Origin: Solirubrobacterales bacterium
GTDB lineage: Bacteria > Actinomycetota > Thermoleophilia > Solirubrobacterales > Solirubrobacteraceae
DNA: 45,670 bases
Reading direction: 5' to 3'
NCBI GenBank assembly: GCA_025964355.1
Contig: JAOPZB010000074.1
Coordinates: 1-45,670, forward strand
Shown here: positions 26,646 through 43,956 of the stretch, in pieces
How positions within the stretch are numbered: position 1 is the stretch's first letter
Layout: the number at the start of each line of letters is the position of its first letter
The notes under the pieces: model-generated
Seen by the model: only the letters and a program-made list of their open reading frames with translations
Database searches by the model: none
What the model was told of the DNA's origin: nothing
Translations under genes and position numbers: made by a program

Positions 26646-28133
26646 CTATTTGGACATCTCAGCGTATGAAGGTGCCTCGCTCGCCCCAGCCAGTCCGCGC
26701 GCGGCACGGGGCAGAAGCGGCCGATGTTCGCGTGAGGCGACGCAGCCCCACCACACCCCGGCGGCGTAGGCCGCGTCATCGACCATCGCCAAGGCGCTCC
26801 AGCGAAGCGCGTCCAGCTCGCTGCCACAGGCACTCCACTCCCGCAGGATCGGCAGCGCCAGCAGAGCCAGCACGGCCGGCAGCGCCGATCCGCCTCGGCG
26901 CCGCGCGATCGCCAGCGTCACCGGCGCTCCGATCGTTCCCGCGTACCGGACGAGCGAAAGCGACGCGCGAAGGACCACCTCGCCGGACCAGCGCGCGGCG
27001 GTCCGCCGCGGCACACCCAGACGCTCGAGGCGAGCGGCGAAGCGCACGAGGGCCGCCGGGCTTGGTGGCAACGTCGCCGCGTTCAGACACCCCGGATGGC
27101 GAGCGCTGAGGGCGGCGGCCGCGGTTCCGTAGCGAAAGCGCCGCGCAAGCGCCGCGCGCAGCGTCGGCGGCTCGTCGTGTGAGACCTCGACCGCCGGGTC
27201 ATAGCGCACCCGCCAGCCCGCATCGTGCAGTCGCCATACGACGTCCACATCCTCGCCGTAGCGCAGGTCCTCGTCGAAGCCCGCCTCCAGCGCTCCGCGG
27301 CGCACGAGCAGAGCGGCGCTCGGCACGTACGTCAGGCTTCCGCCCGGCCTGACCGGCGCCTCGCGCGCTCCCATGTCCAGCGGCGAGCGCGAGCGGAGAT
27401 AGCGTCCGAGTGCTCCGCTTCTTCCTCGCGACTCGCGCGGGAGAGGACCTTCCTGGTCGAGGCCACTCCACCCGACCACGTTCTGACCGGCGCCGCCCGC
27501 CGGGCGCACGCGCGGTGCGACCGCCGCCACGGTCGCGTCGTCGAAATGCCCGACCAGTGCGCGGAGCCAGTCCTCGGGAGGCACGCAATCGCTGTCCAGG
27601 AACGCCACCAGCTCGGTGCTGAGCTTTGCCAGGGCGTCGTTCCGCGCGGCCGCCGGACCGCCGGGCAGCGGTCTGCGGATCAGCTTCGCACCGTGGCGCG
27701 CGGCCAGCGCCGCCACCGCCGCCGCATCGAGCGATCCGTCGTCGACCACGATCGTGCACGAGCGGCGACCGACGGCCGCGAGACAGCGCGCGAGCTGCTC
27801 TGGGCGGTCACGAACGGGGATCACCACGGTCACGCGATCGTCTACGTCACGCGTGACCGGGCGGGGGTGGGCCACTCCAGCGTCGAGCAGGCGCCGGCCA
27901 AGCACGCGCGCCGGCTGTGAGTCGATGCGCCCTTCTTGCACTGCCCGTAGCGCCCTCACGCCGGCGGCGGAGAGTCGCAGCAGCCGGCGTGGCGATCCAC
28001 CCGCCAGCAGCCCCGGTGCGACCAGCCGAGCGTCCGGGTCGAGTGCCAAGCGCGGCGGCGGTGGCGATAGCCCTTCTATCCGCGGCGGCGGCGATGTGAG
28101 CGGGCGCTGCACGCCAGGCGGGTGCCCTCTCAC
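26646..28133 (-). CDS. mftF: Mycofactocin system glycosyltransferase MftF
   Basis: 495 residues starting from GTG 28133, which overlaps the SDR stop as GTGA; this start removes a spurious Arg-rich extension. N-terminal about 95 residues contain the MftF-typical LLAGGSPRRLLRLSAAG segment, an RRE-like region. A GT2 domain follows: VTVVIPVRDRPEQLARCL, DDGS at 131-134, FLDSDCVPP with the metal-binding DxD-like motif, then a conserved RYGEDVDVVWRL. The C-terminus has hydrophobic segments that may anchor it. MftF adds beta-1,4-glucose units to premycofactocin. It is the last gene of the mft operon here. Confidence 0.93.
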   Translation of the reverse strand: MRGHPPGVQRPLTSPPPRIEGLSPPPPRLALDPDARLVAPGLLAGGSPRRLLRLSAAGVRALRAVQEGRIDSQPARVLGRRLLDAGVAHPRPVTRDVDDRVTVVIPVRDRPEQLARCLAAVGRRSCTIVVDDGSLDAAAVAALAARHGAKLIRRPLPGGPAAARNDALAKLSTELVAFLDSDCVPPEDWLRALVGHFDDATVAAVAPRVRPAGGAGQNVVGWSGLDQEGPLPRESRGRSGALGRYLRSRSPLDMGAREAPVRPGGSLTYVPSAALLVRRGALEAGFDEDLRYGEDVDVVWRLHDAGWRVRYDPAVEVSHDEPPTLRAALARRFRYGTAAAALSARHPGCLNAATLPPSPAALVRFAARLERLGVPRRTAARWSGEVVLRASLSLVRYAGTIGAPVTLAIARRRGGSALPAVLALLALPILREWSACGSELDALRWSALAMVDDAAYAAGVWWGCVASREHRPLLPRAARGLAGASEAPSYAEMSK

Positions 28134-28915
28134 AGCGACAGGCCGCCGTCGATCAGATAGTCCGCTCCGGTCACACCGGCGCCGCCGGCGCCCGCCAGCC
28201 ACACGATCAGCGCGGCGATCTCCTCGGGCGCAAGCAGCCGTTCGATTGGCTGCTGGGCGGCGAAGCGCTCGGCCGAGTCCAGCTCATAGAGGCGGGCGCT
28301 CTCCTCGAGGATCGAGGTGTGCGTCGATCCCGGACTGACTGCGTTGGCAGTGATGCCAGTGCCACGCAGCTCCAACGCCAGCGCTCGCACCAGCCCGGTG
28401 ACGCCCGCCTTCGTGGCGCAGTAGGCCGCCAGCATCGGCAGGCCGCGCGAGGCCGCCGAGGAGGCGACCGCGACGAAGCGTCCGGCGCGCGGCTGCGGGC
28501 GCCGCAGGAGCGCCGGAATACCCGCGCGCGCGGCGGCGATGACGCCGCCGAGGTTCGTCTCGATCACAGCCTCCAGCGCCTGAGCCGGCATCTCCCAAAG
28601 CGGCACGCCGCCGGCCACCACGCCCGCGGCGGCGATGACCGCGTCGATGCCGCCGTGCGTCCGCTCCGTATCCGCCATCAGCCGCTCCATGGCGCCGGGA
28701 TCGCCAGCATCGACCACCGCGGCGCTTACGCGCTCGGCGTCGAGCGATGCGACGAGCGCATGCAGCTCCGCATGTGAGCCGAGCGCGTACGGCAGGCGCG
28801 GGTCGTCGGCAGCGCGGTCGGCGGCGACGACCGTCCAGCCGTCCTCCGTCAGCGCGCGCACGGTCGCCGCGCCGATGCCCCGCGCGGCGCCGGTCACGAC
28901 CGCTACACGGCTCAC
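28130..28915 (-). CDS. Mycofactocin-locus short-chain dehydrogenase (SDR)
   Basis: 261 residues. It has the NAD-binding TGAARGIGAAT motif, AAGVVAGG (NAG variant), catalytic Ser in VASSAASRG and YCATK (Tyr-x3-Lys). The sequence PYALGSHAELHAL after the Rossmann turn is reminiscent of mycofactocin-associated SDRs, where the segment may enclose the NAD. It lies between mftD and mftF, 13 bases after mftD, where mftE stands in mycobacteria. It would oxidise an alcohol using tightly bound NAD with mycofactocin as electron acceptor (family knowledge; substrate unknown). Confidence 0.85.
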   Translation of the reverse strand: MSRVAVVTGAARGIGAATVRALTEDGWTVVAADRAADDPRLPYALGSHAELHALVASLDAERVSAAVVDAGDPGAMERLMADTERTHGGIDAVIAAAGVVAGGVPLWEMPAQALEAVIETNLGGVIAAARAGIPALLRRPQPRAGRFVAVASSAASRGLPMLAAYCATKAGVTGLVRALALELRGTGITANAVSPGSTHTSILEESARLYELDSAERFAAQQPIERLLAPEEIAALIVWLAGAGGAGVTGADYLIDGGLSL

Positions 28916-28928
28916 GCTGTCCCCATCC

Positions 28929-30101
28929 TCACGTTCCGAGTACCCGCATGAAGCCGGGTGGGACCAGGACGTCGGCGCTGTTCAGCTCGGCAACCGAGGC
29001 GCGCCCGAGGGCGAGCAGCGCCGAGTCGATGCCCGCCCCCAGGATGTCCAGCACGTTCTCCACGCCCGCCTGCCCGCCGGCCGCGAGGCCCCACAGGTAG
29101 GGACGCCCGATCATCACCGCGCGCGCTCCCAGCGCCAGCCCCTTGGCCACGTCGCCGCCACGGCGCACGCCACCGTCGAGCAGCACCTCGACCTGCGCAC
29201 CGACCGCCTCTGCGACGGCGCCCAGCGCGCGGATCGACGCCGGGGTTCCGTCGAGGTTGTTGCCGCCGTGGTTGGAAACCGACAGAGCGGTTGCGCCGAT
29301 CTGCACCGCGCGCCGCGCGTCGTCCACGCGCATCACGCCCTTGAGCATGAACGGACCCTGCCACTGCTCGCGCAGCCAGCGCAGGTCCTCCCAGCTCGGC
29401 GGGGCCGTCTGCATCCACTCGGCGTATGCCTCGAAGAAGCTCGGAGCGCGCTCACCATCCACCGCCATGTTCGGCACGGTCAGCTGCGGCGGGCCGCCTG
29501 CCCTCGCCCATTCCAGTAGCCAGCTCGGCCGCACGAGCGCGCCGGGCGCCAGCCGTGCCATCGTCGCCAGGCTCATCCGCTCGGGAACCGTGGGGCTGCC
29601 CCAGTCGCGAGCATGGGCGAACGACCAGTCCAGCGTCACGATCAAGCCGACCGCGCCGGCCACGCGGGCTCGCTCCAGCCGCCGCAGGATGCGCTCGCGC
29701 GATCCGGCCCAGTAGACCTGGAAGAGCGTCTGCGGGTTGGCGGCCACGACCTGCTCCACAGGCTTGCTCGCGAAGGAGCTCAGGCCGATGGCCGTGCCGC
29801 GCGCCGCCGCGGCGCGTGCGACCGCCAGCTCGCCTTCCGGGTGCACCGCCTGAACGCCCGTCGGCGAGATCAGGACCGGAAGCGCCAGCTCCTGACCCAT
29901 TACCGTCACGGCCGTGCTGCGCTCGGCGGCCGCGCCCGCGACGTGCGGCGCGAAGCCCAGCTCCGCGAACGCAGCCACGTTGTCGGCAAGCGTCAGCCCC
30001 GACTCAGTGCCGGCGAGCACTGCCATGTACACGTCCCGGGGCAGCCGGCGCTTTGCGCGCCGCTGCGCCTCCGCGACGCTCTCAAACCACGACGATCGCA
30101 T
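28929..30101 (-). CDS. mftD: Premycofactocin synthase MftD (FMN-dependent)
   Basis: 390 residues of the lactate-oxidase/alpha-hydroxyacid dehydrogenase fold: LPVLISPTGVQAVHPEGE, a PFMLKGVMRVDDARRAV strand with the FMN Lys, VSNHGGNNLDGTPAS with the catalytic His, and LLDGGVRRGGDVAKGLALGARAVMIGRP (in pieces). The VSNHGGNNLDG variant is characteristic of MftD. It converts AGDP, made from the MftA C-terminus, to premycofactocin by oxidative deamination. Its start overlaps the end of mftC by 20 bases. FMN phosphate-binding Arg/Gly residues are retained. Confidence 0.95.
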   Translation of the reverse strand: MRSSWFESVAEAQRRAKRRLPRDVYMAVLAGTESGLTLADNVAAFAELGFAPHVAGAAAERSTAVTVMGQELALPVLISPTGVQAVHPEGELAVARAAAARGTAIGLSSFASKPVEQVVAANPQTLFQVYWAGSRERILRRLERARVAGAVGLIVTLDWSFAHARDWGSPTVPERMSLATMARLAPGALVRPSWLLEWARAGGPPQLTVPNMAVDGERAPSFFEAYAEWMQTAPPSWEDLRWLREQWQGPFMLKGVMRVDDARRAVQIGATALSVSNHGGNNLDGTPASIRALGAVAEAVGAQVEVLLDGGVRRGGDVAKGLALGARAVMIGRPYLWGLAAGGQAGVENVLDILGAGIDSALLALGRASVAELNSADVLVPPGFMRVLGT

Positions 30102-31227
30102 CGGGGCTCCCGTTTGCGGCGCGTCGCGACATGTTCACGGAGGGTCGCGGCAACGGCCGATGGCCGCGGGCAGCGAGCGCCTTCTCGCCATGACCGAGCG
30201 CGCACTCCGGGTCCGGGCCGGCGAGCGGCAGGCCCGTGAAGAACTTCGCCGCCATGCAGCCGCCGCGGCAGCTGTCGTAGAAGCCGCAGCTGCCGCAGAC
30301 GCCGGCGGACTGCGGCCGGCGCAGATCGAGGAACAGGTCCGATTCGCGCCACACCGAGGTGAAGCCACCCTCCTGACGAACGTTGCCGGCGAGAAACTGC
30401 TCGTGGATCGCGAAGGGGCACGCATACACGTCCCCAACCGGATCGATCAGGCACACCACCCGGCCGGCGCCGCACAGGTTCAGCCCGGGCAGCTTCTGGC
30501 CGTATGCGGAGAGGTGGAAGAACGAGTCGCCCGTCAGCACCTGCTCCCCCTGGTCCAGCAGCCACTCATAGACCGCTCTCTGCTGAGCTGCCGTGGGTCG
30601 CAGCTCGTCCCACACGTCGGCTCCGCGCCCGGAGGGCCGCAGCCGTGTGAGGCGCAGCTGGGCGCCGTAGCGATCGGCCAGTGTCTTGAGGCGGTCGAGT
30701 TCTCCCGCGTTGCGGCGCGTGAGCACCACCGAGACCTTGAACGGGCCGAAGCCAGCCTCGGCGAGGTGGTCCATGGCGCGCAGCGCCATCGCGTGCGAGC
30801 CTGTGCCGCGGATCGCGTCGTTGACGTCGACGCTGGCGCCGTCGATCGAGACCTGCACATCAACGTAGTCGGCCGCCGCCAGGCGTGCGGCGGCCGGTGC
30901 CGTGATGCGGCTGCCGTTGGTGGAGAACTTGACCCCGACCCTGCGCGCGCTCGCGTAGTCCACGATCTCCCAGAAGTCGCGGCGAACGGTCGGCTCGCCG
31001 CCGCCGATGTTCACGTAGAAGACCTGCAGCCGCTGGAGCTCGTCGACGATCGCCATGCACTCCTCGCTGCTCAGCTCCCGCGGATCGCGCCGGCCTGAAC
31101 TCGAAAGACAGTGCACGCATGCGAGGTTGCACGCGTATGTCAGCTCCCATGTGAGGCAGATCGGGGCATCCAGCCCCGACTCGAAGCGCTCCGCCAGGCC
31201 CAGGGCAGGAGCGCCGCCTGCGCTCAT
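30082..31227 (-). CDS. mftC: Mycofactocin radical SAM maturase MftC
   Basis: 381 residues. Radical SAM cluster C33-x3-C37-x2-C40 (YACNLACVHC), followed by SSSGRRDPRELS, is a hallmark of MftC. NIGGGEPTVR is the SAM-binding GGE motif. The SPASM domain has Cys ligands in CGAGRVVCLIDPVGDVYACPF and in GVCGSCGFYDSCRGGC near the end (in pieces). MftC decarboxylates the C-terminal Tyr of MftA and forms the Val-Tyr crosslink. Its start overlaps the mftB stop (ATGA). Confidence 0.96.
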   Translation of the reverse strand: MSAGGAPALGLAERFESGLDAPICLTWELTYACNLACVHCLSSSGRRDPRELSSEECMAIVDELQRLQVFYVNIGGGEPTVRRDFWEIVDYASARRVGVKFSTNGSRITAPAAARLAAADYVDVQVSIDGASVDVNDAIRGTGSHAMALRAMDHLAEAGFGPFKVSVVLTRRNAGELDRLKTLADRYGAQLRLTRLRPSGRGADVWDELRPTAAQQRAVYEWLLDQGEQVLTGDSFFHLSAYGQKLPGLNLCGAGRVVCLIDPVGDVYACPFAIHEQFLAGNVRQEGGFTSVWRESDLFLDLRRPQSAGVCGSCGFYDSCRGGCMAAKFFTGLPLAGPDPECALGHGEKALAARGHRPLPRPSVNMSRRAANGSPDAIVVV

Positions 31228-31553
31228 GCTGGAACCCGCGGGGCGATCATCCCCGACTCGGCCAGCGTCGCCAGCGCCCGTCCGTAGCGCTCCAGCTCAC
31301 GCTCGCCCACGCCCGCCTCGCGGCACGCCTGTCGAGCGCTCGAGCGATCGGCGAGCGCGACGACGACGTCCACCAGCACGCGGCTCTTGAGAAAGCTCAG
31401 GCGCCGCGTGCCGAAATGGTAGGCCAGCGCCCCGAACGGCTCCGGGCGCAGGGCCACCTGCGGATCGAGGCGCCAGGCCCCGTCCAGGTCGAAGCCGGTG
31501 GCGGCGTCTGCGAGGGCGCCAGCCTTGACGCCGGGCGCCTCGACGACGGCCAT
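31224..31553 (-). CDS. mftB: Mycofactocin precursor-recognition protein MftB
   Basis: 109 residues of the PqqD-like RiPP recognition element type: a beta-strand start (AWRLDPQVALRPEPFGALAYHF), then RRLSFLKSRVLVDVV and a helical end, as in known MftB (FLKS is typical). It binds the leader of MftA and presents it to MftC. Its ATG follows the mftA stop without a gap (TAGATG), and its stop overlaps mftC (ATGA), so the three are tightly coupled. Confidence 0.93.
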   Translation of the reverse strand: MAVVEAPGVKAGALADAATGFDLDGAWRLDPQVALRPEPFGALAYHFGTRRLSFLKSRVLVDVVVALADRSSARQACREAGVGERELERYGRALATLAESGMIAPRVPA

Positions 31554-31781
31554 CTAGTACACGCCGCACATGCCGTCGATCGAGACGTCCTCGACGAGCA
31601 GATCCTCGAGCACCAGCACCTGCTCGGCGGCTTCGGCATGCACCCCGCCGAGCTCCCGCGCCGGGGCCACGCTCGCCGTGCGCTCGTCCGCCGCCTCAAG
31701 CTGCCGCCCCGCGACGACATCCGCGCCGGCGCGACCCCCCTCCATCGTGGGCACACCGGCCTGCTGGAGACCATCAGACAT
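31554..31781 (-). CDS. mftA: Mycofactocin precursor peptide MftA
   Basis: 75 residues from ATG 31781, with GGAGGG six bases upstream (on the minus strand). The end LLVEDVSIDGMCGVY carries the IDGMCGVY core of MftA, whose last Val-Tyr becomes mycofactocin after MftC/MftE/MftD action. EDLLVEDVS is the conserved MftB-binding part. The first about 50 residues (MSDGLQQAGVP...) are a long, acidic, poorly conserved leader, longer than I expect for MftA. An upstream in-frame ATG at 31793 would add MEGS. It heads the operon, with the candidate operator 68 bases upstream. Confidence 0.95.
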   Translation of the reverse strand: MSDGLQQAGVPTMEGGRAGADVVAGRQLEAADERTASVAPARELGGVHAEAAEQVLVLEDLLVEDVSIDGMCGVY

Positions 31782-31878: not shown

Positions 31879-31951
31879 ATATATCTGGGCCTGGACGTGG
31901 ACGATGCCCTACACGACAAAGGAAGCAGTGGATCGGCAGGGGAAGGGACGC

Positions 31952-32857
31952 ATGGCAGCCGGGCGTAATCCCGCAGACGACGCGGGAGGAGGCGAGGACC
32001 GGGCGGGGCCCAACGACGGGTCCGCCGCGGACGACGGCGCCAGGCGACGCGCATCCGGCGCTCAGCGACCGGCGGGCGTGCCTGCGGTGCTCCACACGGC
32101 CGCGATCCTGCGCCATCTTCAGAGCAAAGCCAACCAGCCGATGGCGATGACCGAGCTGGCCCGCGATCTGCAGATAAACAACAGCACCTGCTTCAACATC
32201 CTGCGCACTCTTGCCCACGAGGGCTTCCTCGACTACGACCCCGACACGCGCCGTTACCGGCTGGGCATGGGACTGGTGGAGCTGGCCTCGATGGTCGACG
32301 ACCACGGCCAGCTCGTCAACGCCGCGCTGATCCACGCCGAGCAGGTGGCCGAGGAAGTGCGCCAGGCGTGCCTGATCGTGCGCAAGGCCAGCGACGACTC
32401 GTTCGTGGTGGTCGGCAAGGCAGACGGTCCCGGCAGCCTCAAGCTGACCGCCACAGTCGGCGATCGCCTTCCCCCGTACGGCGCGGTGCTGGGCAAGGCT
32501 TACTTCGCCTGGTGCGACGAGCAGGAGGTCGACCGCATGCTCCAGGGCCACGGGCTGCCGGCGCGCACCGAATCCTCGATCACCGGCTATGAGGACTTCA
32601 AGCGCGAGCTCGACCGCACCCGCCAACGCGGCTACTCGGTGAGCGTCGGCGAGTACTACGACGAGTACAACGCCGTCGGCGTGCCCGTGCTCGACCCGGA
32701 CGGTAGGCCCTCCCTGGTGCTTTGCGTCACCGGGCTGGCCTCGCGCATACCGCCGCGCGTGATGCCCTTTATCGGCGCCCGGCTGCGGCGGGCGGCAATG
32801 GCGATCTCCCGCGACGTCTACCGACGAGCCGACCGGCCTGTGCTGCGCAGCGCATGA
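31952..32857 (+). CDS. IclR-family transcriptional regulator
   Basis: 301 residues from ATG 31952, behind GGAAGGG; the frame extends to an ATG at 31904 without a clear ribosome site. A disordered, Asp/Arg-rich N-terminus of about 40 residues precedes the winged helix (VLHTAAILRHLQS, AMTELARDLQINNSTCFNILRTLAHEGFL in pieces). The effector GAF-like domain ends with NAVGVPVLDPDGRPSLVLCVTG. IclR proteins commonly control aromatic, sterol-like or acid catabolism. It is divergent from mftA and overlaps the first SDR by ATGA, so it is autogenously coupled to its probable targets. It replaces the TetR-type MftR of mycobacteria. Confidence 0.9.
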   Translation: MAAGRNPADDAGGGEDRAGPNDGSAADDGARRRASGAQRPAGVPAVLHTAAILRHLQSKANQPMAMTELARDLQINNSTCFNILRTLAHEGFLDYDPDTRRYRLGMGLVELASMVDDHGQLVNAALIHAEQVAEEVRQACLIVRKASDDSFVVVGKADGPGSLKLTATVGDRLPPYGAVLGKAYFAWCDEQEVDRMLQGHGLPARTESSITGYEDFKRELDRTRQRGYSVSVGEYYDEYNAVGVPVLDPDGRPSLVLCVTGLASRIPPRVMPFIGARLRRAAMAISRDVYRRADRPVLRSA

Positions 32858-33708
32858 GCCCCACGCGCTTCACGGGCAAGGTCGCGCTCGTCACCGGCGC
32901 TGCGCGCGGACAGGGACGCGCCCACGCGCTGGCGCTGGCCGCCGAGGGAGCCGACCTGATCCTGTGCGATATCGGCGCCGGCGAGGCGGGCACCATAGGG
33001 ACGCTGCCCTACGCGCTGGGCAGCGAGGAGGGCCTCGCCGAGACGGCCGGGCAGGTGCGGGCGCTCGGTCGGGATGCGCTGACCTGCACGGCCGACGTTC
33101 GCGACAGCGGACAGGTGGACGGCGCCGTCGCCGCTGGCCTGGAGCGGTTCGGACAGATCGACGTGCTGCTCGCCAATGCAGGCATCGCCAGCATCTCGCG
33201 CATCGAAGACATGCCCGACGCGATGTGGCGCGAGATGATCGACATCAACCTCACCGGGGTCTTCAACAGCCTGCGAGCCGTCGCACCCCACATGGCCGGG
33301 CGCGGCTATGGGCGGATCGTGGCCACCTCCTCGATCGTCGGACGCCAGGGCTCGCCCAACATCGGCCACTACGTGGCAGCCAAGTGGGGCGTGATCGGGC
33401 TCGTCAAGAGCCTCGCGATCGAGCTGGCTGACCGCGGCGTGACCGTCAACGCGGTGGCCCCCACCTCGGTCGACACCGAGATGATTCAGAACGAGGGCTT
33501 CTGGCGGCTGTTCCTGCCCGACGCCGAGCAGATCCGCGAGCAGGACGTGCGCGACGCATACACGGCCCTGAACCCGATCCCGATCCCGTGGTTGCAGGCG
33601 GCCGACGTCTCCCACTCGGTGCTGTTCCTGGCCTCCGACGAAGCCAAGTTCATCACCGGCGAGGTGCTGCCCGTGGCGCTTGGATGGAACGCCAGGAATG
33701 CGAGCTAG
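32854..33708 (+). CDS. Mycofactocin-coupled SDR family oxidoreductase (copy 1)
   Basis: 284 residues from ATG 32854, overlapping the IclR stop. The NAD motif TGAARGQGRAHA with its GQGRAH signature is the mark of mycofactocin-coupled SDRs. CDIGAG follows the second strand, then an insert YALGSEEGLAET, LLANAGIA, and the Ser and Tyr-x3-Lys of TSSIVGRQGSPNIGHYVAAKWGV (in pieces). In this family the NAD stays bound, and electrons pass to mycofactocin. It is 9 bases upstream of a second copy, which is clearly similar but not identical. Confidence 0.9.
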   Translation: MSPTRFTGKVALVTGAARGQGRAHALALAAEGADLILCDIGAGEAGTIGTLPYALGSEEGLAETAGQVRALGRDALTCTADVRDSGQVDGAVAAGLERFGQIDVLLANAGIASISRIEDMPDAMWREMIDINLTGVFNSLRAVAPHMAGRGYGRIVATSSIVGRQGSPNIGHYVAAKWGVIGLVKSLAIELADRGVTVNAVAPTSVDTEMIQNEGFWRLFLPDAEQIREQDVRDAYTALNPIPIPWLQAADVSHSVLFLASDEAKFITGEVLPVALGWNARNAS

Positions 33709-33716
33709 GAGGACAT

Positions 33717-34577
33717 ATGGAGCGCTTCGCCGAGAAGATCGTGATGGTCACTGGAGCCGGACGCGGACAGGGCCGCGCCCATGCGCTGCGATTCGCCGGC
33801 GAGGGCGCGCACCTGGTTCTGTGCGACCTACCTGCCGCTCGCGGCGACGCTGAGCTCGACCCGCCCGCCACCGTCCCATACGAGCTCTCAAAGCCCGAGG
33901 ATCTGGAGGAGACCGCCCGCCAGGTGCAGGCACTCGGGCGCCGCGCGGTGGCGATGGGAGCCGATGTGCGCAGCCTCGAGCAGATGTCCGCCGTCGTCGC
34001 GGAGGCCGAGCGTGCGCTCGGACCGATCGACGTGCTGGTCGCCAACGCTGGGATCTGCACATCCAATCCGTTGCCGACGATGAGCGTGCAGGTCTGGCAG
34101 GAGACGATCGACATCAACCTCACCGGCGTCTTCAACGCCTGCCGCGCTGTGATCCCGGGGATGATCGAGCGCGGCCACGGCGGGCGCGTCGTCGCCATCG
34201 CCTCGATGGCCGGACGCGCGGGGTGGGAGAACATCGGCCACTACGCCGCCTCCAAGTGGGGCGTCATCGGGCTCGTCAAGAGCCTCGCCCTGGAGGTCGC
34301 TCCGCACGGCATCACCGCCAACGTGATCTGCCCCAGCTCGGTGAACACCACGATGATGCACAACGACTCCTCATACAGGCTGTTCCGACCCGATCTCGAG
34401 AACCCCACGCGCGAGGACGTGCTGCCCGCATTCGCCAGCGTCAACGTGATCCCCGTGCCCTACGTCGAGCCGGAGGACATCTCCGACGGGGTGCTGTTCC
34501 TCGCCTCGCAGGAGGCAGCCGGCATCACCGGCGCGACCCTGTCGATCTCGGCCGGCGTCAACGCGCTCAACATCTGA
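33717..34577 (+). CDS. Mycofactocin-coupled SDR family oxidoreductase (copy 2)
   Basis: 286 residues from ATG 33717, with AGGAGG eight bases before. It has TGAGRGQGRAHA, CDLPAA, the YELSKPEDLEET insert, LVANAGIC, and the catalytic SMAGRAGWENIGHYAASKWGV stretch (Ser, YAASK). It is a close paralogue of the preceding gene, and both end with the SDR G-E/T-x4-G pattern. The two may differ in substrate stereochemistry or form a mixed oligomer (inference). It is convergent with the ACAD gene, 74 bases away. Confidence 0.92.
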   Translation: MERFAEKIVMVTGAGRGQGRAHALRFAGEGAHLVLCDLPAARGDAELDPPATVPYELSKPEDLEETARQVQALGRRAVAMGADVRSLEQMSAVVAEAERALGPIDVLVANAGICTSNPLPTMSVQVWQETIDINLTGVFNACRAVIPGMIERGHGGRVVAIASMAGRAGWENIGHYAASKWGVIGLVKSLALEVAPHGITANVICPSSVNTTMMHNDSSYRLFRPDLENPTREDVLPAFASVNVIPVPYVEPEDISDGVLFLASQEAAGITGATLSISAGVNALNI

Positions 34578-34651: not shown

Positions 34652-35956
34652 CTACAGGTTCGCGCTGGCCTGCGTGAGCAGCTCGCCGAACTTCTCGAGC
34701 GCCGCGGCACGCCTGGTCGGCACGTGCTCGCTGGGCAGCTCCCTCGGCGTGTAGCCCGCGAGGATGCGCCTGGCGACCGACTGGTGATGGACCTCGTCGG
34801 GGCCGTCGTAGATGCGCGCGGCGCGCGCGTTGCGGTACATCGACTCGAGCGGCATGTCCGTCGAGAACCCGAGCGCACCGTGCACCTGCACGGCGCGGTC
34901 GATCACGTCGTAGAGCACTCGGGCGCCGTGGAACTTGATCATCGAGATCTCCTGGTGAGCCGCGCGGGCGCCCTCCTGGTCGATCTTCCACGCGGTGTAG
35001 AGCGTCATCAGCCGAGCCGACAGCAGCTGTGCGGCCGACTCCGCCACCCACTCCTGGACCGTGCCCTTCTCCGCCAGCGTGGAGCCGTGCGCGCTGCGCG
35101 ACACGGCGCGCTCGCAGAGCATGTCGAAAGCGCGCTGGCCCTGCCCGAGCCAGCGCATGCAGTGCTGGATGCGCCCCGGGCCCAGGCGCCGCTGAGCGAG
35201 GATGAAGCCCGCTCCGCGTTCGCCAAGCAGGTTCTCCGCCGGCACGCGCGCTTCTTCGTAGGCGATTTCGGCGTGGCCGAAGCCGCCGGCGCGGAAGCGT
35301 CCGGGCGCGCCGCTGGGGTCCTCCATCGTCGGCACGTCGCGCACGATCCGCAGCCCGGGAGCATCGGTGGGCACGACCAGCATCGAGGCGCGCTTGTGCG
35401 GGGCGGCGTCCGGATCGGTTACGACCATCGCGATCAGGAAGTCGGCGACCGAGCCGTTGGAGGTGAACCACTTGCAGCCGTCGATCACCCACTCATCCCC
35501 CTCCAGCCGCGCCGTCGTCTGCAGCAGCGTCGGGTCCGAGCCGGCCGTCTGCGGCTCGGTCATCGAGAAGGCGCTCTTGACGCGCCCATCCAGCAGCGGC
35601 TCGAGGAACCGCGCGCGCTGCTCCTCGTTGCCGGTCGCCGCCAGCAGCTCGGCGTTGCCGGCGTCAGGCGCCTGGCTGCCGAATACCGTCGGGCCAAAGG
35701 CCGACCGACCGGTGAGCTCCGCCAATAGCCCCAGCTGCAGGCTGCCATAGCCCTGACCGCCGTGCTCCGGCGGCAGATGCGCAGCCCACAGCCCGTGGTC
35801 CTTGACCTGCTCGCGCAGCGGCTCGAGCACGCGCGCGAGGTCCTCCTCGGGCACGCCCTCGAGCGTCTCCAGCGCATAGACCTCACGCTCCATGAATTCC
35901 CTGGCCCAGTCGAGTCTCGCGGCCAGCTCCGGATCGGTGGCGAACTCCCAGCTCAT
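34652..35956 (-). CDS. Acyl-CoA dehydrogenase, ACAD10/ACAD11-like
   Basis: 434 residues from ATG 35956, overlapping the thiolase stop (ATGA). The full ACAD fold has AAHLPPEHGGQGYG, FSMTEPQTAGSDPT for FAD/substrate, WFTSNG, and RVPAENLLGERGAGF. IYDGPDEVHHQSVARRIL is the C-terminal loop typical of ACAD10/11 homologues; the Asp in DGPDEVH stands where MCAD has its catalytic Glu. In mammals this domain is fused to an APH kinase domain; here the APH is a separate gene at 38020. Such enzymes eliminate phosphate from 4-phosphoryloxyacyl-CoA. The long frame upstream in antisense to the crotonase is not coding. Confidence 0.9.
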   Translation of the reverse strand: MSWEFATDPELAARLDWAREFMEREVYALETLEGVPEEDLARVLEPLREQVKDHGLWAAHLPPEHGGQGYGSLQLGLLAELTGRSAFGPTVFGSQAPDAGNAELLAATGNEEQRARFLEPLLDGRVKSAFSMTEPQTAGSDPTLLQTTARLEGDEWVIDGCKWFTSNGSVADFLIAMVVTDPDAAPHKRASMLVVPTDAPGLRIVRDVPTMEDPSGAPGRFRAGGFGHAEIAYEEARVPAENLLGERGAGFILAQRRLGPGRIQHCMRWLGQGQRAFDMLCERAVSRSAHGSTLAEKGTVQEWVAESAAQLLSARLMTLYTAWKIDQEGARAAHQEISMIKFHGARVLYDVIDRAVQVHGALGFSTDMPLESMYRNARAARIYDGPDEVHHQSVARRILAGYTPRELPSEHVPTRRAAALEKFGELLTQASANL

Positions 35957-37119
35957 GCCAGACGCTCGATCAGCATCGCCATCCCCTGTCCGCCCCCGAT
36001 GCACATCGTCTCCAGGCCGATCGTGGCGTCGCGCTCCTGCAGGTCGTGTATCAGCGTCGTCATGATCCGCGCCCCGGTCATGCCGAAGGGATGGCCCAGC
36101 GCGATCGCGCCGCCGTGGGGATTCAGCTGCTCCTCGACGCTGATGCCAAGCTCGTCGCAGACGGCGAGCACCTGCGCGGCGAACGCCTCGTTGAGCTCGA
36201 CCACGTCGACGTCTGAGATGGTCATGTCCGCGCGCTTGAGCGCGCGGCTGACGGCCTCGATCGGTCCCACTCCCATGATCTCCGGGGAGAGCCCGGACAC
36301 GGCCGAGGACAGGATCCTGGCCTTGGGGGTCATGCCAAGCTCGCCGGCGCGCGACTCCGACATCACCAGCACCGCTGCTGCGCCGTCGTTGAGCGGGCAC
36401 GAGTTGCCGGCCGTCACGCGGCCGTCCTCGCGAAACGCGGGCTTCAGCTCCGCCAGGCGCGCCACCGTGGTGCCCGGGCGAGGGCAGTCGTCGCGCTCCA
36501 TCAGCCCGCCGTCGGGCAACGGCACGGCCGTGACCTCGGCGTCGAAGAAGCCCGAGGCCTGCGCGTCCAGGGCGCGGCTCTGCGACAGGGCCGCGTACTC
36601 GTCCATGCGCTCGCGCGAGATGCCCCACCGGTCGGCCACGTTCTCCGCCGTCAGCCCCATGGAGATGTACATGTCGTTGACGTAGTCCGAGCGCGCCCGG
36701 TCGCTGAAGCGCGGGTTCATGTCGCCCTCCTCGAAGTCGCGCCCCGCGACGCGGCTCACGCACTCGACGCCGGCTGCGATGAAGGTGTCGCCTTCGCCCG
36801 CCGCAATCGCGTGGTGCGCCATGCGGATCGCCTGCAGCGACGAGGCGCAGAAGCGGTTGACGGTGGTTCCCGCAACGGTGTCCGGCAGGCCCCCGAGAGC
36901 GCCGATCAGCCTGCCCAGGTTCATCGCCTGCTCGCCGGCCTCGCAGGCCGTGCCGCAGATGACGTCCTCGACCTCCGCCGGGTCCAGGCCCGGAACCTTC
37001 TCCAGCAGGGCGCGCACCGCGAAGCCGCCGAGATCGTCCGAGCGCACCCCCGTCAGCGAGCCCTTGAACGCGCGGCCGATCGGGGTACGGGCCGTCTCCA
37101 CGATCACGGTGCCGGTCAC
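35953..37119 (-). CDS. Acetyl-CoA acetyltransferase / 3-ketoacyl-CoA thiolase
   Basis: 388 residues with all thiolase residues: the acylated Cys in VNRFCASSLQAI (about residue 90), VVELNEAFAAQVLAV, NPHGGAIALGHPFGMTGARI with the His, and the second Cys in METMCIGGGQGMAM-like ETMCIGGGQGMAM. It cleaves 3-ketoacyl-CoA to acetyl-CoA (or propionyl-CoA) at the end of beta-oxidation. It is first in a two-gene operon with the ACAD10/11-like gene and divergent from the crotonase operon; the 94-base gap holds operator site 2. Confidence 0.94.
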   Translation of the reverse strand: MTGTVIVETARTPIGRAFKGSLTGVRSDDLGGFAVRALLEKVPGLDPAEVEDVICGTACEAGEQAMNLGRLIGALGGLPDTVAGTTVNRFCASSLQAIRMAHHAIAAGEGDTFIAAGVECVSRVAGRDFEEGDMNPRFSDRARSDYVNDMYISMGLTAENVADRWGISRERMDEYAALSQSRALDAQASGFFDAEVTAVPLPDGGLMERDDCPRPGTTVARLAELKPAFREDGRVTAGNSCPLNDGAAAVLVMSESRAGELGMTPKARILSSAVSGLSPEIMGVGPIEAVSRALKRADMTISDVDVVELNEAFAAQVLAVCDELGISVEEQLNPHGGAIALGHPFGMTGARIMTTLIHDLQERDATIGLETMCIGGGQGMAMLIERLA

Positions 37120-37151
37120 AGCTCAAGCATCCATGCCGATCCGCGCCGCGG

Positions 37152-37180
37152 CCAGCCGTTTCTCCACACAGAACACGGTT
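37152..37180. promoter_or_regulatory. Candidate IclR operator, site 2 (thiolase/crotonase gap)
   Basis: Read on the minus strand it is AACCGTG-TTCT-N6-AGAA-ACGGCTGG. This shares 7/7, 4/4 and 4/4 bases of the conserved blocks with site 1 at 31849, and 5 of 8 in the right flank. AACCGT and ACGGCT make it nearly palindromic. It sits between two divergent catabolic operons. Confidence 0.5.
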
Positions 37181-37213
37181 GCCAGTGCCGTCGCGCGCAC
37201 GCACGATGAGCGC

Positions 37214-38020
37214 ATGGGACTGGACGGCTCCGCCTACTCCTTCTTCGACGTGCAGGTGCGTGACGGGATCGCGTTCGTGACAATCAACCGACCGGAGCGC
37301 ATGAACGCGTGTGGCGCCGAGGACCACGGCGAGTTCGCGGCCGTGCTGCGCGACATCGCCTCGGATCCGGATGTGATCGTGGCGGTGCTCCACGGCGCCG
37401 GCAAGGCATTCTCGGTCGGCGCAACCTATGAATGGATGGACGAACTGACGCGAGACCCGCAGATGCTGGTCGAGCTGCAGGACCAGGTGCGCGAGCTGGT
37501 GCGCGCGCACATCGACCTCGACAAGCCTGTGGTCGCGGCGGTCAACGGCGTCGCAACCGGCTCCGGTCTGATGTTCGCGCTGCTCTCGGACTACGTGATC
37601 ATGGAGGAGCAGGCCAAACTGGCCGACGGCCACGTGCGGGCTGCGCTGGCGGCGGGCGACGGCGGCACTCTGATCTGGCCGCTGGCCACGGGAATCACGC
37701 GCGCCAAGCGCTACCTGCTGACCGGCGACTGGATCGAGGCGCACGAGGCCGAGCGCATCGGCCTGGTCACCGAGGTCGTTGCGACCGGCACCTCTCTGGC
37801 GAGGGCCACGGCGGTCGCCGAGCGTTTCAGCGTCATGCCGCAGATGGCCGTCAGGGCCAGCAAGCGCGCGATCAACCAGTGGCTGTCCGTCGGCATGGCC
37901 ACGAGCTTCGACTACGCGGCCGCCCTGGAGATGCAGACCTTCTCGCTCGGGGGGGAGGAGGTGCGCGCGGCGGTGGCGATGCTGCGCAACGGGCAGACGC
38001 CGCCCGGCGGCGAGATCTGA
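37214..38020 (+). CDS. Crotonase-superfamily protein (enoyl-CoA hydratase/isomerase-like)
   Basis: 268 residues from ATG 37214. Crotonase fold: VTINRPERMNACG, FSVGATYEWMDE (first oxyanion loop) and AVNGVATGSGLMFALLSDYV (second). Aligned to rat hydratase, Glu144 is replaced by Met (GSGLMF) and Glu164 by His (ADGHVRAAL). Classical hydration is therefore unlikely, and isomerase, hydrolase or C-C lyase activity is possible. It is the first of five coupled genes; its TGA shares an A with the ATG of the APH gene. Confidence 0.88.
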   Translation: MGLDGSAYSFFDVQVRDGIAFVTINRPERMNACGAEDHGEFAAVLRDIASDPDVIVAVLHGAGKAFSVGATYEWMDELTRDPQMLVELQDQVRELVRAHIDLDKPVVAAVNGVATGSGLMFALLSDYVIMEEQAKLADGHVRAALAAGDGGTLIWPLATGITRAKRYLLTGDWIEAHEAERIGLVTEVVATGTSLARATAVAERFSVMPQMAVRASKRAINQWLSVGMATSFDYAAALEMQTFSLGGEEVRAAVAMLRNGQTPPGGEI

Positions 38021-39078
38021 TGGGGGGCGCCGCGCAGGCCCGCCCCGCCGACGACCCCACCCAGGCACAGATCCTGCCGGGGCTCGACCTGGGTCGGCTG
38101 CGGCCGTGGCTGCAGTCGCGCCTTGATCTCGCAGACGGGGCACTCGACGCCGAGATCATCTCCGGCGGGCGTTCGAACCTCACCTTCCGCCTGCACTCGG
38201 GTCAGCAGCAGTGGATACTGCGCCGCCCACCGCTCGGGCCCCTGCTGCCGAAGGCCCACAGCATGCACCGCGAGTACCTCGTGCTGCACGGTCTCGCCGC
38301 CGGCGATGTGCCCACGCCGACGGTGCTCGCGATGTGCGAGGACGAGCAGGTGATCGGCGTGCCCTTCTACGTGATGGAGCTCGTGCCCGGCCGCGTCCTG
38401 CGAGCTCCCGAGGAAGTCGACCTGACCGCCTCGCAGGCCGACGCCTGCGCCACCGGCCTGGTTCGCACGCTGGCGCGCCTGCACCTGTTCGACTACGAGC
38501 GCGCCGGCCTCGGCCGCCTGGGCCGCCCGCAGGGCTACACCGAGCGCCAGGTCGCGCGCTGGCATGGCCAGCTGGAGGCAGTCCGGGTGCGCTCCCTGCC
38601 CGCACTCGACGAGCTCGGCCGCCGCCTGAACACCGGAATGCCGCGCGCGCGGCACAGCTCGCTGCTGCACGGCGACTACCGCATCGACAACGTGATCCTC
38701 GACGAGCGCGACCCTGGACGCATCCGCGCGGTGCTCGACTGGGAGATGGCCACGCTCGGCGATCCGATGGCCGACCTGGGGATGCTGCTGATGTACTGGG
38801 GCGAGCCCGGAGAGGTGTTTGCATCGCCTGTGCACGAGATCCCGGCGCGCGCCGGCTTTCCCACGCGCGCGCAAGCGGTGGAGCTGTACGCGCGCGAGAC
38901 AGGCTGGGATCTGGAGGGCCTCGACTTCTTCGTTGCGCTCGCCTACTTCAAGCTCGCCGTCATCGTCGAGGGCATCCACGCCCGCCACCTGAACGGACTG
39001 ACCGTCGGCGAGGGCTTCGAGCGGATCTCCGAGATCGCGCCGGTGCTGGCCGAGCAGGGGCTGGAGGCCCTGCGATGA
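38020..39078 (+). CDS. APH-fold (aminoglycoside-phosphotransferase-like) kinase, ACAD10/11/LvaA-type
   Basis: 352 residues from ATG 38020. The kinase fold has SGGRSNLTFRL as glycine-rich loop, LRRPPLGPLLPKAHSMHREY with the Lys/Glu pair, VPFYVMELVPGRVL at the hinge, catalytic SLLHGDYRIDNVI, and metal-binding LDWEMATLGDPMADLG (in pieces). This APH subgroup is found with ACADs. In Pseudomonas, LvaA phosphorylates the 4-hydroxyl of 4-hydroxyvaleryl-CoA, and in vertebrates the domain is fused to ACAD10/11. Antibiotic resistance is improbable in this context. Coupled to the crotonase (TGATG) and the next ACAD (ATGA). Confidence 0.93.
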   Translation: MGGAAQARPADDPTQAQILPGLDLGRLRPWLQSRLDLADGALDAEIISGGRSNLTFRLHSGQQQWILRRPPLGPLLPKAHSMHREYLVLHGLAAGDVPTPTVLAMCEDEQVIGVPFYVMELVPGRVLRAPEEVDLTASQADACATGLVRTLARLHLFDYERAGLGRLGRPQGYTERQVARWHGQLEAVRVRSLPALDELGRRLNTGMPRARHSSLLHGDYRIDNVILDERDPGRIRAVLDWEMATLGDPMADLGMLLMYWGEPGEVFASPVHEIPARAGFPTRAQAVELYARETGWDLEGLDFFVALAYFKLAVIVEGIHARHLNGLTVGEGFERISEIAPVLAEQGLEALR

Positions 39079-40223
39079 TCCTCGACTCCTTTCCCTCACC
39101 CACGCTGAGCTTCGGCGAGGCGGAGAGCGAGCTGCGCGAGCGACTGCGCGACTGGATCGCCGCAAACGATCCGGGAGAGGTGCCCGAGGACTACGAGGAG
39201 CGCCTGCGCAGCGGCGTGCGCTGGCAGGCGGCGCTGAACGACGCCGGGTTCATCGGACTGTCGTGGCCGCGCGAGTACGGTGGCCACGGCCTGGGCCTGG
39301 CCGCCGAGGCGGTCCTGGCCGAGCAGATGGCCACCTCGGGGCAGCCCGAGCTGATCAACCGCATCGGCGTCTACATGATCGGCCCCACCATGATGGACAT
39401 GGACACCGAGGAGCATCGCCGCCGGTTCTTGCCCGGCATGCTCGACGCCAGCGAGTTGTGGTGCCAGGGGTTCTCCGAGCCCGATGCCGGCTCGGACCTC
39501 GCCGCCGTGCGCACGAGCGGGAGGGTTGACGGGGACGATCTGGTGATCAACGGGCAGAAGGTCTGGACCAGTCGCGCGCACATCGCGCGCTGGTGCGCTG
39601 CCCTGGTGCGCACAGAGCCAGGCTCGCAGCGTCACACCGGGCTGTCGATGGCGATCGTGGACATGGGTGCGCCTGGCATCACCGTGCGCGCCCTCCCGCA
39701 GATCCTCGGCGAGCCGCACTTCAACGAGGTGTTCTTCGACGACGTCCGCGTGCCCGCGGAGGACCTGATCGGCCGTCCGGGAGACGGCTGGCGCGTGGCG
39801 ATGCAGATGCTCTCCTACGAGCGCGGCCTGTTCGTCCTGGAGCGCCAGATCCGCCTGCGCCAGCGCCTCGACGAGCTGGCCGACCGTCTCGACCGCCAAG
39901 ACGCTAGCGTCGAGGAGCGCGTGGGCCGTGTCCGCTGCGAACTGGACCTGCTGCAGGCCCAGGCATATCGCACGCTCGCCGCGCAGCGGGACGGTACGCT
40001 GCGAAGCGGCGCCACGTCCGTAGACAAGCTGCTGCTCTCCCACGTCTACCAGGAGCTGTTCGCGCTGGGTGCCGACGTGCTCGGGCCCGAGGTCGCGCTG
40101 GGCCTGAACGACTGGACGCACGACCTGCTGGAGTCGCGCGCCGTGAGCATCTACGGCGGCAGCACCGAGATCCAGCACGGGATCGTGGCACGCCAGCTGC
40201 TGGGCATCAGCGAGGCCCGATGA
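39075..40223 (+). CDS. Acyl-CoA dehydrogenase subunit, alpha-like, of a two-subunit pair
   Basis: 382 residues from ATG 39075. It keeps FIGLSWPREYGGHGLGLA, the FAD/substrate stretch WCQGFSEPDAGSDLAAVRTSG, WTSRAHIA, RVPAEDLIGRPGDGW, and the end SIYGGSTEIQHGIVARQLLG. The R-x-x-FG-x-x-I/Q motif of single-gene ACADs, normally in the C-terminal helical domain, is absent. The next gene has it. Paired genes of this type form alpha2beta2 dehydrogenases in sterol and side-chain catabolism in actinobacteria. Overlaps both neighbours by ATGA. Confidence 0.9.
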   Translation: MILDSFPSPTLSFGEAESELRERLRDWIAANDPGEVPEDYEERLRSGVRWQAALNDAGFIGLSWPREYGGHGLGLAAEAVLAEQMATSGQPELINRIGVYMIGPTMMDMDTEEHRRRFLPGMLDASELWCQGFSEPDAGSDLAAVRTSGRVDGDDLVINGQKVWTSRAHIARWCAALVRTEPGSQRHTGLSMAIVDMGAPGITVRALPQILGEPHFNEVFFDDVRVPAEDLIGRPGDGWRVAMQMLSYERGLFVLERQIRLRQRLDELADRLDRQDASVEERVGRVRCELDLLQAQAYRTLAAQRDGTLRSGATSVDKLLLSHVYQELFALGADVLGPEVALGLNDWTHDLLESRAVSIYGGSTEIQHGIVARQLLGISEAR

Positions 40224-41287
40224 GCGCCGCCGCGGCCGACGAGCTGGAGCTGGCGCGCTCGTTCGATGTGGCGCTGGCGGCAATCCTCGCGATCCCTCGC
40301 CTGCTGGAGAACGTCGAGGCCGATGACCACCTCGCCGCGGACTCGCAACGCGCGCTGCTGGGGCTGGCCTGGAGCGCGATCGCCGTCGAGGAGTCCGATG
40401 GCGGCCTGGGGTTGCCGGTGCGCACACGGGCGCGGCTTTCGGCGGTCGCGGGCCGACGGCTGCTGCCCGTGGCAATGCGCGGCGAGGCGTTCGTGCTGGC
40501 GCCGGCGCTGGCGGCGCTGGCGCGCCAGGGCGATGACGTTGCCGGCGTCCAGCTCGAGCGACTGCTCGTCGGCGATCTGCGGGGCGCCGTGGCCGTCGCC
40601 GCCGACCTGAGCGCCGGCTCCGAGCCGGCCGCGGAGGCGCTCTACGCACACGTGCCGCCGGCCGCCGAGCTGCTCGCCTGTGTCGGCGACGACTGGGCGA
40701 TCGTGGCGGATCTCGACAGCGTGGAGCTGGAGCCCATGCACGGGCTCGACGCGGGCCAGGGATTGGCACGCGTGCTCGTGCCCGCCGGCGGCCTCGCCGG
40801 CAGGCGTGTTCCCGCGGAGACGGTGGCGGGGCTGCGGCGCAACTGGCTGCTGGCGCTCGTCAGCGAGTGCTACGGCGCCGGGCTGCGCGTGTTGGAGCTG
40901 TCCGTCGAATACGCCCGGCAGCGGGAGCAGTTCGGCCAGAAGATCGCGAGCTTCCAGGCGGTTTCGCATACGCTGGCGCGCATGGCGGTGGAGCTGGAGG
41001 CGGCCGACGCCGGGATCGGCGCTCTGTGCGCTGCATGGGACGCGCCCGCTCTGCCGGGCGAGGCCATCGAGCTGGCCCTCGCCCACGCGGTCCCCGCCGC
41101 CGCGCGCTCGGCTTGCGAGTCGGCGATCCAGGTCCACGGCGGCGTCGGCTTCAGCTGGGAGCTGGGACTGCACCTGTACTACCGCCGCGTGCTTGGCATT
41201 CAGTACCTGCTCGGCGGCGACGCCGCTACCGCGCAGGCGGCCGGCGCCGCGTATCTCCGCGAGCGTAGGCAGGTGGCGCATGGCTGA
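40220..41287 (+). CDS. Acyl-CoA dehydrogenase subunit, beta-like, of a two-subunit pair
   Basis: 355 residues from ATG 40220. The N-terminal half is degenerate: ALLGLAWSAIAVEESDGGLGLP is recognisable but no SEPxAGSD-type FAD loop follows. The C-terminal half is strong: EYARQREQFGQKIASFQAVSHTLARM, IQVHGGVGFSWELGLHLYYRRVLG (in pieces). It therefore supplies the Arg/FG FAD-contact motif missing in the partner. It overlaps the partner by ATGA and the next crotonase by eight bases. Confidence 0.88.
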   Translation: MSAAAADELELARSFDVALAAILAIPRLLENVEADDHLAADSQRALLGLAWSAIAVEESDGGLGLPVRTRARLSAVAGRRLLPVAMRGEAFVLAPALAALARQGDDVAGVQLERLLVGDLRGAVAVAADLSAGSEPAAEALYAHVPPAAELLACVGDDWAIVADLDSVELEPMHGLDAGQGLARVLVPAGGLAGRRVPAETVAGLRRNWLLALVSECYGAGLRVLELSVEYARQREQFGQKIASFQAVSHTLARMAVELEAADAGIGALCAAWDAPALPGEAIELALAHAVPAAARSACESAIQVHGGVGFSWELGLHLYYRRVLGIQYLLGGDAATAQAAGAAYLRERRQVAHG

Positions 41288-42110
41288 GCCCGAGGCCGGC
41301 GGGGAGCCCGCCGTGCTGGTCGAGGACCGCGGCGAGGTTCGCTGGGTGCTGCTCAACCGGCCCGCGGCGCGCAACGCGCAGAATGCCGCGATGCTCGCCG
41401 AGCTGGCGAGCGTGCTGGAGCGGACAACCCGCGAGCCCACCCCGCGGGCGCTCGTGCTCGGCGGCGTCGGGCCGAGCTTCTCGGCGGGGCACGACCTCAA
41501 GGAGTCGACGTTCAACCCCGTCTATCGCGCCAACAACGAGACGGTCGAGGGGCGCCTGTGGCAGGAGCTCGAGCTGTTCGTGCGCCCGATCGAGCTGCTT
41601 CGCGGCCTGCCGATGCCGACGATCTGCCGGGTGCAGGGTCACTGCATCGCCGCCTCGCTGATGCTCGTCGGCGCCGTCGACCTGGTCGTGGCCGGGGCCG
41701 ACGCACGCTTCTCCTCGGCGGTCACGCGCGACATGGGGGCTGCAGACGTGGAGGTACCCTCGCTGGCGTGGGCGCTCGGCGACAGGCGCGCCAAGCAGAT
41801 GATCTGGTGCAGCGAAGAGATCGGCGCCGAGGAGGCGCTGCGCCTTGGACTCGTCAACTGGGTGGTGGACGTCGATGCGCTCGACGCCAAGGTCGAGGAG
41901 GTGGTCACCGAGCTGCTGGACGTGCCGCGTGAGGCGCTCGCGCTGTCCAAGCTCAGCTTCCGCTTCATGGACGACCGCCGGGGACGCGTCGACGCGGAGG
42001 CCTACCACTACCTCGCCCACCAGCTCAGCCATCACACCAGCGACGCCGTGGCGCTGCTGCGCGCGCGGGTCTCCGAACTGGAGGCCCGGCTCGGCCCCCC
42101 GGCCGGCTGA
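41280..42110 (+). CDS. Crotonase-superfamily protein, second copy
   Basis: 276 residues from ATG 41280. The fold is shown by VLLNRPAARNAQNAAML, FSAGHDLKEST and VQGHCIAASLMLVGAVDLVVAG. Aligned to rat enoyl-CoA hydratase, the Glu144 position is Met (AASLML) and the Glu164 position Val (FSSAVTRDMG), so both acid/base residues are missing. An insert LWQELELFVRPIELLRGLP follows the first oxyanion loop. Function may be isomerase, dehalogenase-like or thioester hydrolysis; the context says acyl-CoA. It is the last gene of the five-gene operon, convergent with the ligase. Confidence 0.87.
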   Translation: MAEPEAGGEPAVLVEDRGEVRWVLLNRPAARNAQNAAMLAELASVLERTTREPTPRALVLGGVGPSFSAGHDLKESTFNPVYRANNETVEGRLWQELELFVRPIELLRGLPMPTICRVQGHCIAASLMLVGAVDLVVAGADARFSSAVTRDMGAADVEVPSLAWALGDRRAKQMIWCSEEIGAEEALRLGLVNWVVDVDALDAKVEEVVTELLDVPREALALSKLSFRFMDDRRGRVDAEAYHYLAHQLSHHTSDAVALLRARVSELEARLGPPAG

Positions 42111-42136
42111 GAGCGAGCCCGCCGGAGCGCCCGGGA

Positions 42137-42154
42137 GCCCCGCGCACCCGGGGC
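42137..42154. terminator. Candidate bidirectional terminator hairpin
   Basis: GCCCCG-N6-CGGGGC, a perfect GC stem, lies in the 56-base gap between the convergent crotonase and ligase genes. No T-run follows, which is common in high-GC actinobacteria. Confidence 0.45.
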
Positions 42155-42166
42155 GGAGAGCGGCTC

Positions 42167-43858
<1,692 letters not shown>

Positions 43859-43956
43859 TACATCCTCGATGAGCGGTGACAGACTGCGGCCCAGAGGACG
43901 TATCAGAGGATCGAACAAGCAACATTGTACAGGCAGCAAGCAACCGAGGAGGTCGG

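What the first reader, a model, noticed from the sequence alone, without database searches (positions are those of the whole stretch)
26646..31781. Mycofactocin operon lacking mftE, with an SDR in its usual place
The order is mftA-B-C-D-SDR-F. mftE, the creatininase-like peptidase that frees the crosslinked dipeptide from the MftA core, normally stands between mftD and mftF. No creatininase-like frame exists on either strand of the window. Either mftE is encoded elsewhere or another peptidase does the job. The M28-like protein at 16263 is exported and lacks the Glu pair, so it is a poor substitute.
Basis: partly seen in the sequence, partly recalled or inferred. Interest (0 to 1): 0.65.

Follow-up and report, generated by a model that had tools for sequence, protein, structure and literature searches.

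The report
Cofactor operon missing its peptidase gene
This soil actinobacterium carries an otherwise ordinary gene set for the redox cofactor mycofactocin but has lost the gene for the usual peptide-cutting enzyme, a loss that has happened several times in related bacteria and is probably covered by a general-purpose cell peptidase.

Summary
The operon on the minus strand is mftA-B-C-D-SDR-mftF with no mftE, and no creatininase was found anywhere in the genome bin, which is 83.7% complete. 'SDR in mftE's usual place' is wrong: in 49 of 50 related clusters that have both genes, this SDR family (TIGR04504) lies directly downstream of mftE. The window has simply lost mftE between mftD and the SDR, leaving a 13-base gap. 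Its two mycofactocin-positive genus-mates keep mftE there, and the window's proteins group with theirs at moderate support. The other genes look intact, and two mycofactocin-coupled SDRs sit next door. The absence is not unique: eight other actinobacterial genomes, at least 95% complete, have mftC but no recognisable mftE; seven keep mftD. Haft 2011 already reported mftE as non-universal, and an M. smegmatis mftE deletion still makes reduced mycofactocin through an unidentified peptidase. Most likely this is a natural mftE-less pathway rescued by a housekeeping peptidase. A split mftE in the unsampled 16% is the main rival. New member of a known kind.

The parts
31554..31781 (-). mftA, precursor peptide ending ...EDVSIDGMCGVY
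   Evidence: TIGR03969 45.8 bits; the IDGMCGVY end is identical to mftE-containing relatives
31224..31553 (-). mftB, peptide chaperone
   Evidence: TIGR03967 112 bits
30082..31227 (-). mftC, radical SAM maturase (CNLACVHC motif and C-terminal SPASM cysteines present)
   Evidence: TIGR03962 625 bits; departs at 1 of 128 near-invariant columns, T to S
28929..30101 (-). mftD, premycofactocin synthase
   Evidence: TIGR03966 665 bits; departs at 2 of 104 near-invariant columns, both conservative
28916..28928 (-). 13-base gap between the mftD stop and the SDR start, where genus-mates G109 and G100 carry mftE (about 0.7 kb)
   Evidence: sequence; relatives' gene order
28130..28915 (-). mycofactocin-coupled SDR oxidoreductase (SDR_subfam_2/4)
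   Evidence: TIGR04504 331 bits, NF040491 300 bits, both over cut-off; TGxxxGxG and YxxxK motifs present
26646..28202 (-). mftF, mycofactocin glycosyltransferase (the true start is probably about 90 bases inside the listed ORF)
   Evidence: TIGR03965 343 bits, profile match begins at residue 65; start position is inference
31904..32857 (+). IclR-type regulator, divergent from mftA; possible local regulator
   Evidence: BhcR/PcaR-type IclR models, under cut-off; role is inference
32851..33708 (+). mycofactocin-coupled SDR (SDR_subfam_1), likely client enzyme
   Evidence: TIGR03971 339 bits, cut-off 300
33714..34577 (+). second mycofactocin-coupled SDR (SDR_subfam_1), likely client enzyme
   Evidence: TIGR03971 334 bits, cut-off 300

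Best explanation
This is a functional mycofactocin biosynthesis operon from which mftE was lost in place, from an ancestral A-B-C-D-E-SDR-F operon. MftB and MftC still modify the C-terminal Val-Tyr of MftA. The leader is then removed by one or more general cytosolic peptidases not linked to the cluster (an aminopeptidase trimming up to the crosslinked core would suffice), giving AHDP. MftD oxidises AHDP to premycofactocin, MftF glycosylates it, and the adjacent SDRs use it. Shown here: the gene content, the loss relative to genus-mates, the conserved enzyme residues, the recurrence of the loss. Inferred: that the cofactor is made, and the identity of the peptidase.
For: Loss in place: the window's MftC+SDR+MftD group with genus-mates G109 and G100 (SH-aLRT 93), both of which have mftE between mftD and the SDR. 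No creatininase in the bin. In this GTDB family all 26 other genomes with an over-cut-off mftE have it within about 3 kb of mftC, so a lone distant copy would be unusual. Enzymes kept under constraint: 1, 2 and 0 departures at 128, 104 and 36 near-invariant columns of MftC, MftD and SDR. Clients present: two TIGR03971 SDRs on the same contig. Recurrence: 8 other mftC-positive genomes of at least 95% completeness with no TIGR03964 match at E<=0.001, 7 of which keep an over-cut-off mftD; in four of them the order is also A-B-C-D-SDR. Experiment by others: M. smegmatis delta-mftE still makes mycofactocin at lower level and accumulates GAHDP; the authors infer an unknown peptidase and note an aminopeptidase would suffice (PMC7491314); delta-mftE is the only mft mutant that still grows, slowly, on ethanol (PMC6529628).
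Against: The bin is only 83.7% complete, so a separate mftE could be missing. Split mftE does occur in other families: by hand count, 14 of about 60 mftE-bearing genomes of the phylum sample have it on another contig or more than 15 kb from mftC. No replacement peptidase gene was found conserved near mftE-less clusters, so the rescuing enzyme is unidentified. No chemistry was measured. In M. smegmatis the rescue is partial.
Confidence: 0.7

Rival explanations
1. Split cluster: a genuine mftE lies elsewhere in the genome, in the roughly 16% that the bin lacks.
For: The bin is 83.7% complete in 264 contigs. In other families of the phylum about 14 of 60 mftE genes lie far from mftC (hand count). 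Parafrankia soli has an mftE-less cluster plus a strong mftE elsewhere (342 bits).
Against: 26 of 26 over-cut-off mftE-bearing genomes in this GTDB family have it next to the cluster. With split:absent odds of about 14:8 from the phylum sample and a 16% chance of missing the gene, the chance of a hidden copy is about 0.2 (own estimate).
Confidence: 0.2
2. The loss is recent and the pathway is impaired or on its way out: little or no mature cofactor is made.
For: Most same-genus genomes lack an over-cut-off mftC altogether, so the system is easily gained or lost in this genus.
Against: Near-invariant residues of MftC, MftD and SDR are kept although the window's end branch is long (0.25 changes per site). 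The frames are open and tightly spaced, and client SDRs are kept. mftE-less clusters with intact mftD persist in several lineages.
Confidence: 0.07
3. Assembly or binning artefact: mftE was dropped in assembly, or the contig belongs to another organism.
For: Metagenome bin with 3.8% estimated contamination.
Against: The mftD-SDR junction is a clean 13-base operon gap with both genes full length. The proteins group with those of two genus-mates. G+C and GC3 of the operon are close to those of the rest of the contig.
Confidence: 0.03

Closest known systems
Canonical mycofactocin cluster mftABCDEF (Mycobacterium; Haft 2011, PMC3023750)
   Same: mftA, B, C, D and F over NCBIfam cut-offs; MftA ends IDGMCGVY
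   Different: No mftE; a TIGR04504 SDR lies in the operon; an IclR gene rather than mftR (TetR) is next to mftA
Solirubrobacterales clusters of the same genus (G109 = DAHUYQ010000010.1, L071; G100 = JAJYUP010000066.1, L079)
   Same: Same gene order on one strand; SDR 70% and 66% identical; MftC 78.5% and MftD 75.6% identical to G109
   Different: They keep mftE between mftD and the SDR
Other natural mftE-less clusters: Acidimicrobiales L116 and L128; GTDB family f51 (G372, G434, G469, G480); Actinophytocola oryzae L081 and A. gossypii L102
   Same: mftA-C and a TIGR04504-type SDR without a local mftE; L116, L128 and the f51 set also have A-B-C-D-SDR
   Different: Separate on the tree (6-9 changes of the label); mftF or mftD placed differently in several; Actinophytocola keeps paralogous creatininases below the mftE cut-off
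M. smegmatis delta-mftE laboratory mutant (PMC7491314, PMC6529628)
   Same: mftABCD and F without mftE
   Different: An engineered deletion, with reduced but measurable mycofactocin

Membership tests
Mycofactocin biosynthesis cluster | Radical SAM maturase MftC (TIGR03962) | tested here: met
   625 bits, cut-off 265
Mycofactocin biosynthesis cluster | Precursor MftA with conserved C-terminus (TIGR03969) | tested here: met
   45.8 bits, cut-off 25; ends IDGMCGVY
Mycofactocin biosynthesis cluster | Chaperone MftB (TIGR03967) and glycosyltransferase MftF (TIGR03965) | tested here: met
   112 bits (cut-off 33) and 343 bits (cut-off 280)
Mycofactocin biosynthesis cluster | MftD (TIGR03966); common but not universal | tested here: met
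   665 bits, cut-off 471
Mycofactocin biosynthesis cluster | Peptidase MftE (TIGR03964); common but not universal (Haft 2011), so not required for membership | tested here: not met
   Absent from the window and the bin
Mycofactocin biosynthesis cluster | Produces premycofactocin/mycofactocin | not testable with these tools
   Needs mass spectrometry
Mycofactocin-coupled SDR (SDR_subfam_2, TIGR04504) | Score over curated cut-off; Rossmann and YxxxK motifs | tested here: met
   331 bits, cut-off 250; TGAARGIG and YCATK
MftE / creatininase family | Any window or bin protein matching TIGR03964 or PF02633 | tested here: not met
   None

The most novel reading that the evidence does not exclude
Several actinobacterial lineages, including this one, make mycofactocin with a dedicated, unrecognised non-creatininase peptidase encoded away from the cluster, repeatedly recruited when mftE is lost.
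Probability: 0.12. Interest if true: 0.55.

Novelty: new member of a known kind. Interest (0 to 1): 0.3.

Why it matters
The peptidase that rescues mycofactocin synthesis when mftE is deleted is unknown in M. smegmatis. Natural mftE-less genomes that keep mftC and mftD (here and in at least seven near-complete genomes) would let that peptidase be sought by comparative genomics and biochemistry. The window itself is one incomplete bin and adds only one more case.

Tried and rejected
SDR replacing mftE: rejected, because the SDR follows mftE in 49 of 50 clusters that have both. Hidden or divergent mftE in the window: rejected with a family-specific profile on six frames. A substitute peptidase encoded next to mftE-less clusters: all-against-all comparison of 17 mftE-less loci with 63 mftE-bearing loci showed no peptidase tied to the former; the groups most shared among mftE-less loci and a few other neighbours were scanned and are arginyl-tRNA synthetase, Zn alcohol dehydrogenase, acyl-CoA synthetase, NTP transferase, periplasmic binding protein and flavin oxidoreductases. 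Altered MftA core in mftE-less clusters: rejected, ends are the same IDG(M/L/I)CGVY. Loss of mftD together with mftE in family f51: rejected, mftD is kept elsewhere in the genome. In one search some mftE queries were taken on the wrong strand; mftE calls were redone with clean queries. One search failed for a frame error and was repeated.

Full report
What is there. The window is a whole contig (G000:C74) of a 2.78 Mb metagenome bin, 83.69% complete and 3.78% contaminated. Its nearest mycofactocin-bearing genus-mate is a Solirubrobacterales bin, DAHUYQ010000010.1. On the minus strand lie mftA (31554-31781), mftB (31224-31553), mftC (30082-31227), mftD (28929-30101), an SDR (28130-28915) and mftF (26646-28202), each over its NCBIfam cut-off. 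An IclR regulator and two mycofactocin-coupled SDRs of TIGR03971 run divergently from mftA (31904-34577).

Absence of mftE. TIGR03964 finds nothing in the bin. The wider creatininase family PF02633 finds nothing at E<=10. The MftE of the nearest genus-mate gives only a 12-bit chance match. A profile made from 19 mftE proteins of the same GTDB family finds no frame in the window, although it scores 271-376 bits in the relatives' clusters. The mftD stop and the SDR GTG start are 13 bases apart.

The SDR is not in mftE's place. In 50 clusters that hold both genes, mftE is the immediate upstream neighbour of this SDR in 49. The usual operon in this family is A-B-C-D-E-SDR-F. In genus-mates G109 (L066/L071) and G100 (L063/L079) mftE lies exactly between mftD and the SDR. 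A tree of MftC+SDR+MftD puts the window with these two (SH-aLRT 93, moderate). The simplest history is loss of mftE in place.

How unusual. In the GTDB family (146 genomes), 28 have mftC over cut-off and 26 of these have mftE, all within about 3 kb of mftC. The two exceptions are the window's genome and G127, whose contig ends inside mftD and so is uninformative. Across the phylum (396 genomes, asked for at 90% completeness or more; the window's own bin is included), 73 have mftC over cut-off. Eight of them other than the window, G372, G375, G434, G444, G454, G469, G480 and G520 (95-98% complete), have no TIGR03964 match at E<=0.001. Three more (G329, G457, G472) have a divergent MftC of about 330 bits and are set aside. 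Seven of the eight keep an over-cut-off mftD; G520 does not. Four of them (G372, G434, G469, G480) have A-B-C-D-SDR, like the window. Among named genomes, mftE-less clusters occur in Actinophytocola oryzae, A. gossypii, Acidimicrobiales and others, whose whole genomes also lack an over-cut-off mftE; Parafrankia soli, in contrast, has a strong mftE elsewhere. On the tree the presence/absence label needs 9 changes, at least 6 forced by well-supported branches; this label refers to the local cluster, and some of its rows are short or incomplete contigs.

Chance that a copy is hidden. By hand count, about 14 of the phylum's mftE genes lie on another contig or more than 15 kb from mftC, against 8 true absences. 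With a 16% chance that the bin misses a gene, the odds are about 0.36 to 0.10 for true absence, i.e. about 0.8. This is a rough estimate; it ignores that contig breaks inflate the split count and that no split was seen in this family.

Mechanism. Known biochemistry: MftC modifies the Val-Tyr end of MftA, MftE releases AHDP, MftD makes premycofactocin, MftF glycosylates (PMC7491314, PMC11778925). In M. smegmatis, deletion of mftE lowers but does not abolish mycofactocin, and GAHDP (one glycine too many) accumulates; the authors infer an unknown peptidase and note that an aminopeptidase would suffice. The same mutant is the only mft mutant that still grows, slowly, on ethanol. The window fits this: the core sequence of MftA is unchanged, MftC, MftD and the SDR depart from near-invariant positions at 1/128, 2/104 and 0/36 columns, and client SDRs are next door. 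That the cofactor is actually made, and by which peptidase, is inference.

No local substitute. Comparing 17 mftE-less loci with 63 mftE-bearing ones showed no peptidase tied to the former.

Relation to known work. Haft 2011 already stated that the creatininase (TIGR03964) occurs in most but not all mycofactocin species. The finding is therefore a new member of a known kind.

Noticed in passing
L181-L189, L195 (GTDB family f51): Within one family some clusters are A-B-C-E-SDR and others A-B-C-D-SDR or A-B-C-SDR; mftD is kept elsewhere in the genome when not local, whereas mftE is missing from the genome in the six cases where it is not local.
   Followed up: partly
L190 (G472), G329, G457: Same-class genomes with a divergent MftC (about 330 bits) and, in L190, a MftA-like end LAVDGICGVY with no mftB, mftD or mftE recognised nearby; possibly a separate mycofactocin-like subfamily.
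   Followed up: no
L056, L059, L060, L068 (genus g17): Clusters in which mftE (with an SDR and mftF) runs divergently upstream of mftA instead of after mftD.
   Followed up: no
   Followed up: partly
window 34652-44760: Acyl-CoA dehydrogenases, a thiolase and an SDR, with enoyl-CoA hydratase-like and acyl-CoA synthetase-like frames by eye, flank the mycofactocin operon, suggesting a catabolic island for a CoA-linked substrate.
   Followed up: partly
L138:9448-9975: mftE-like matches broken over two or three frames next to the SDR in an Actinomycetota bin, possibly a decaying or frameshifted mftE.
   Followed up: no
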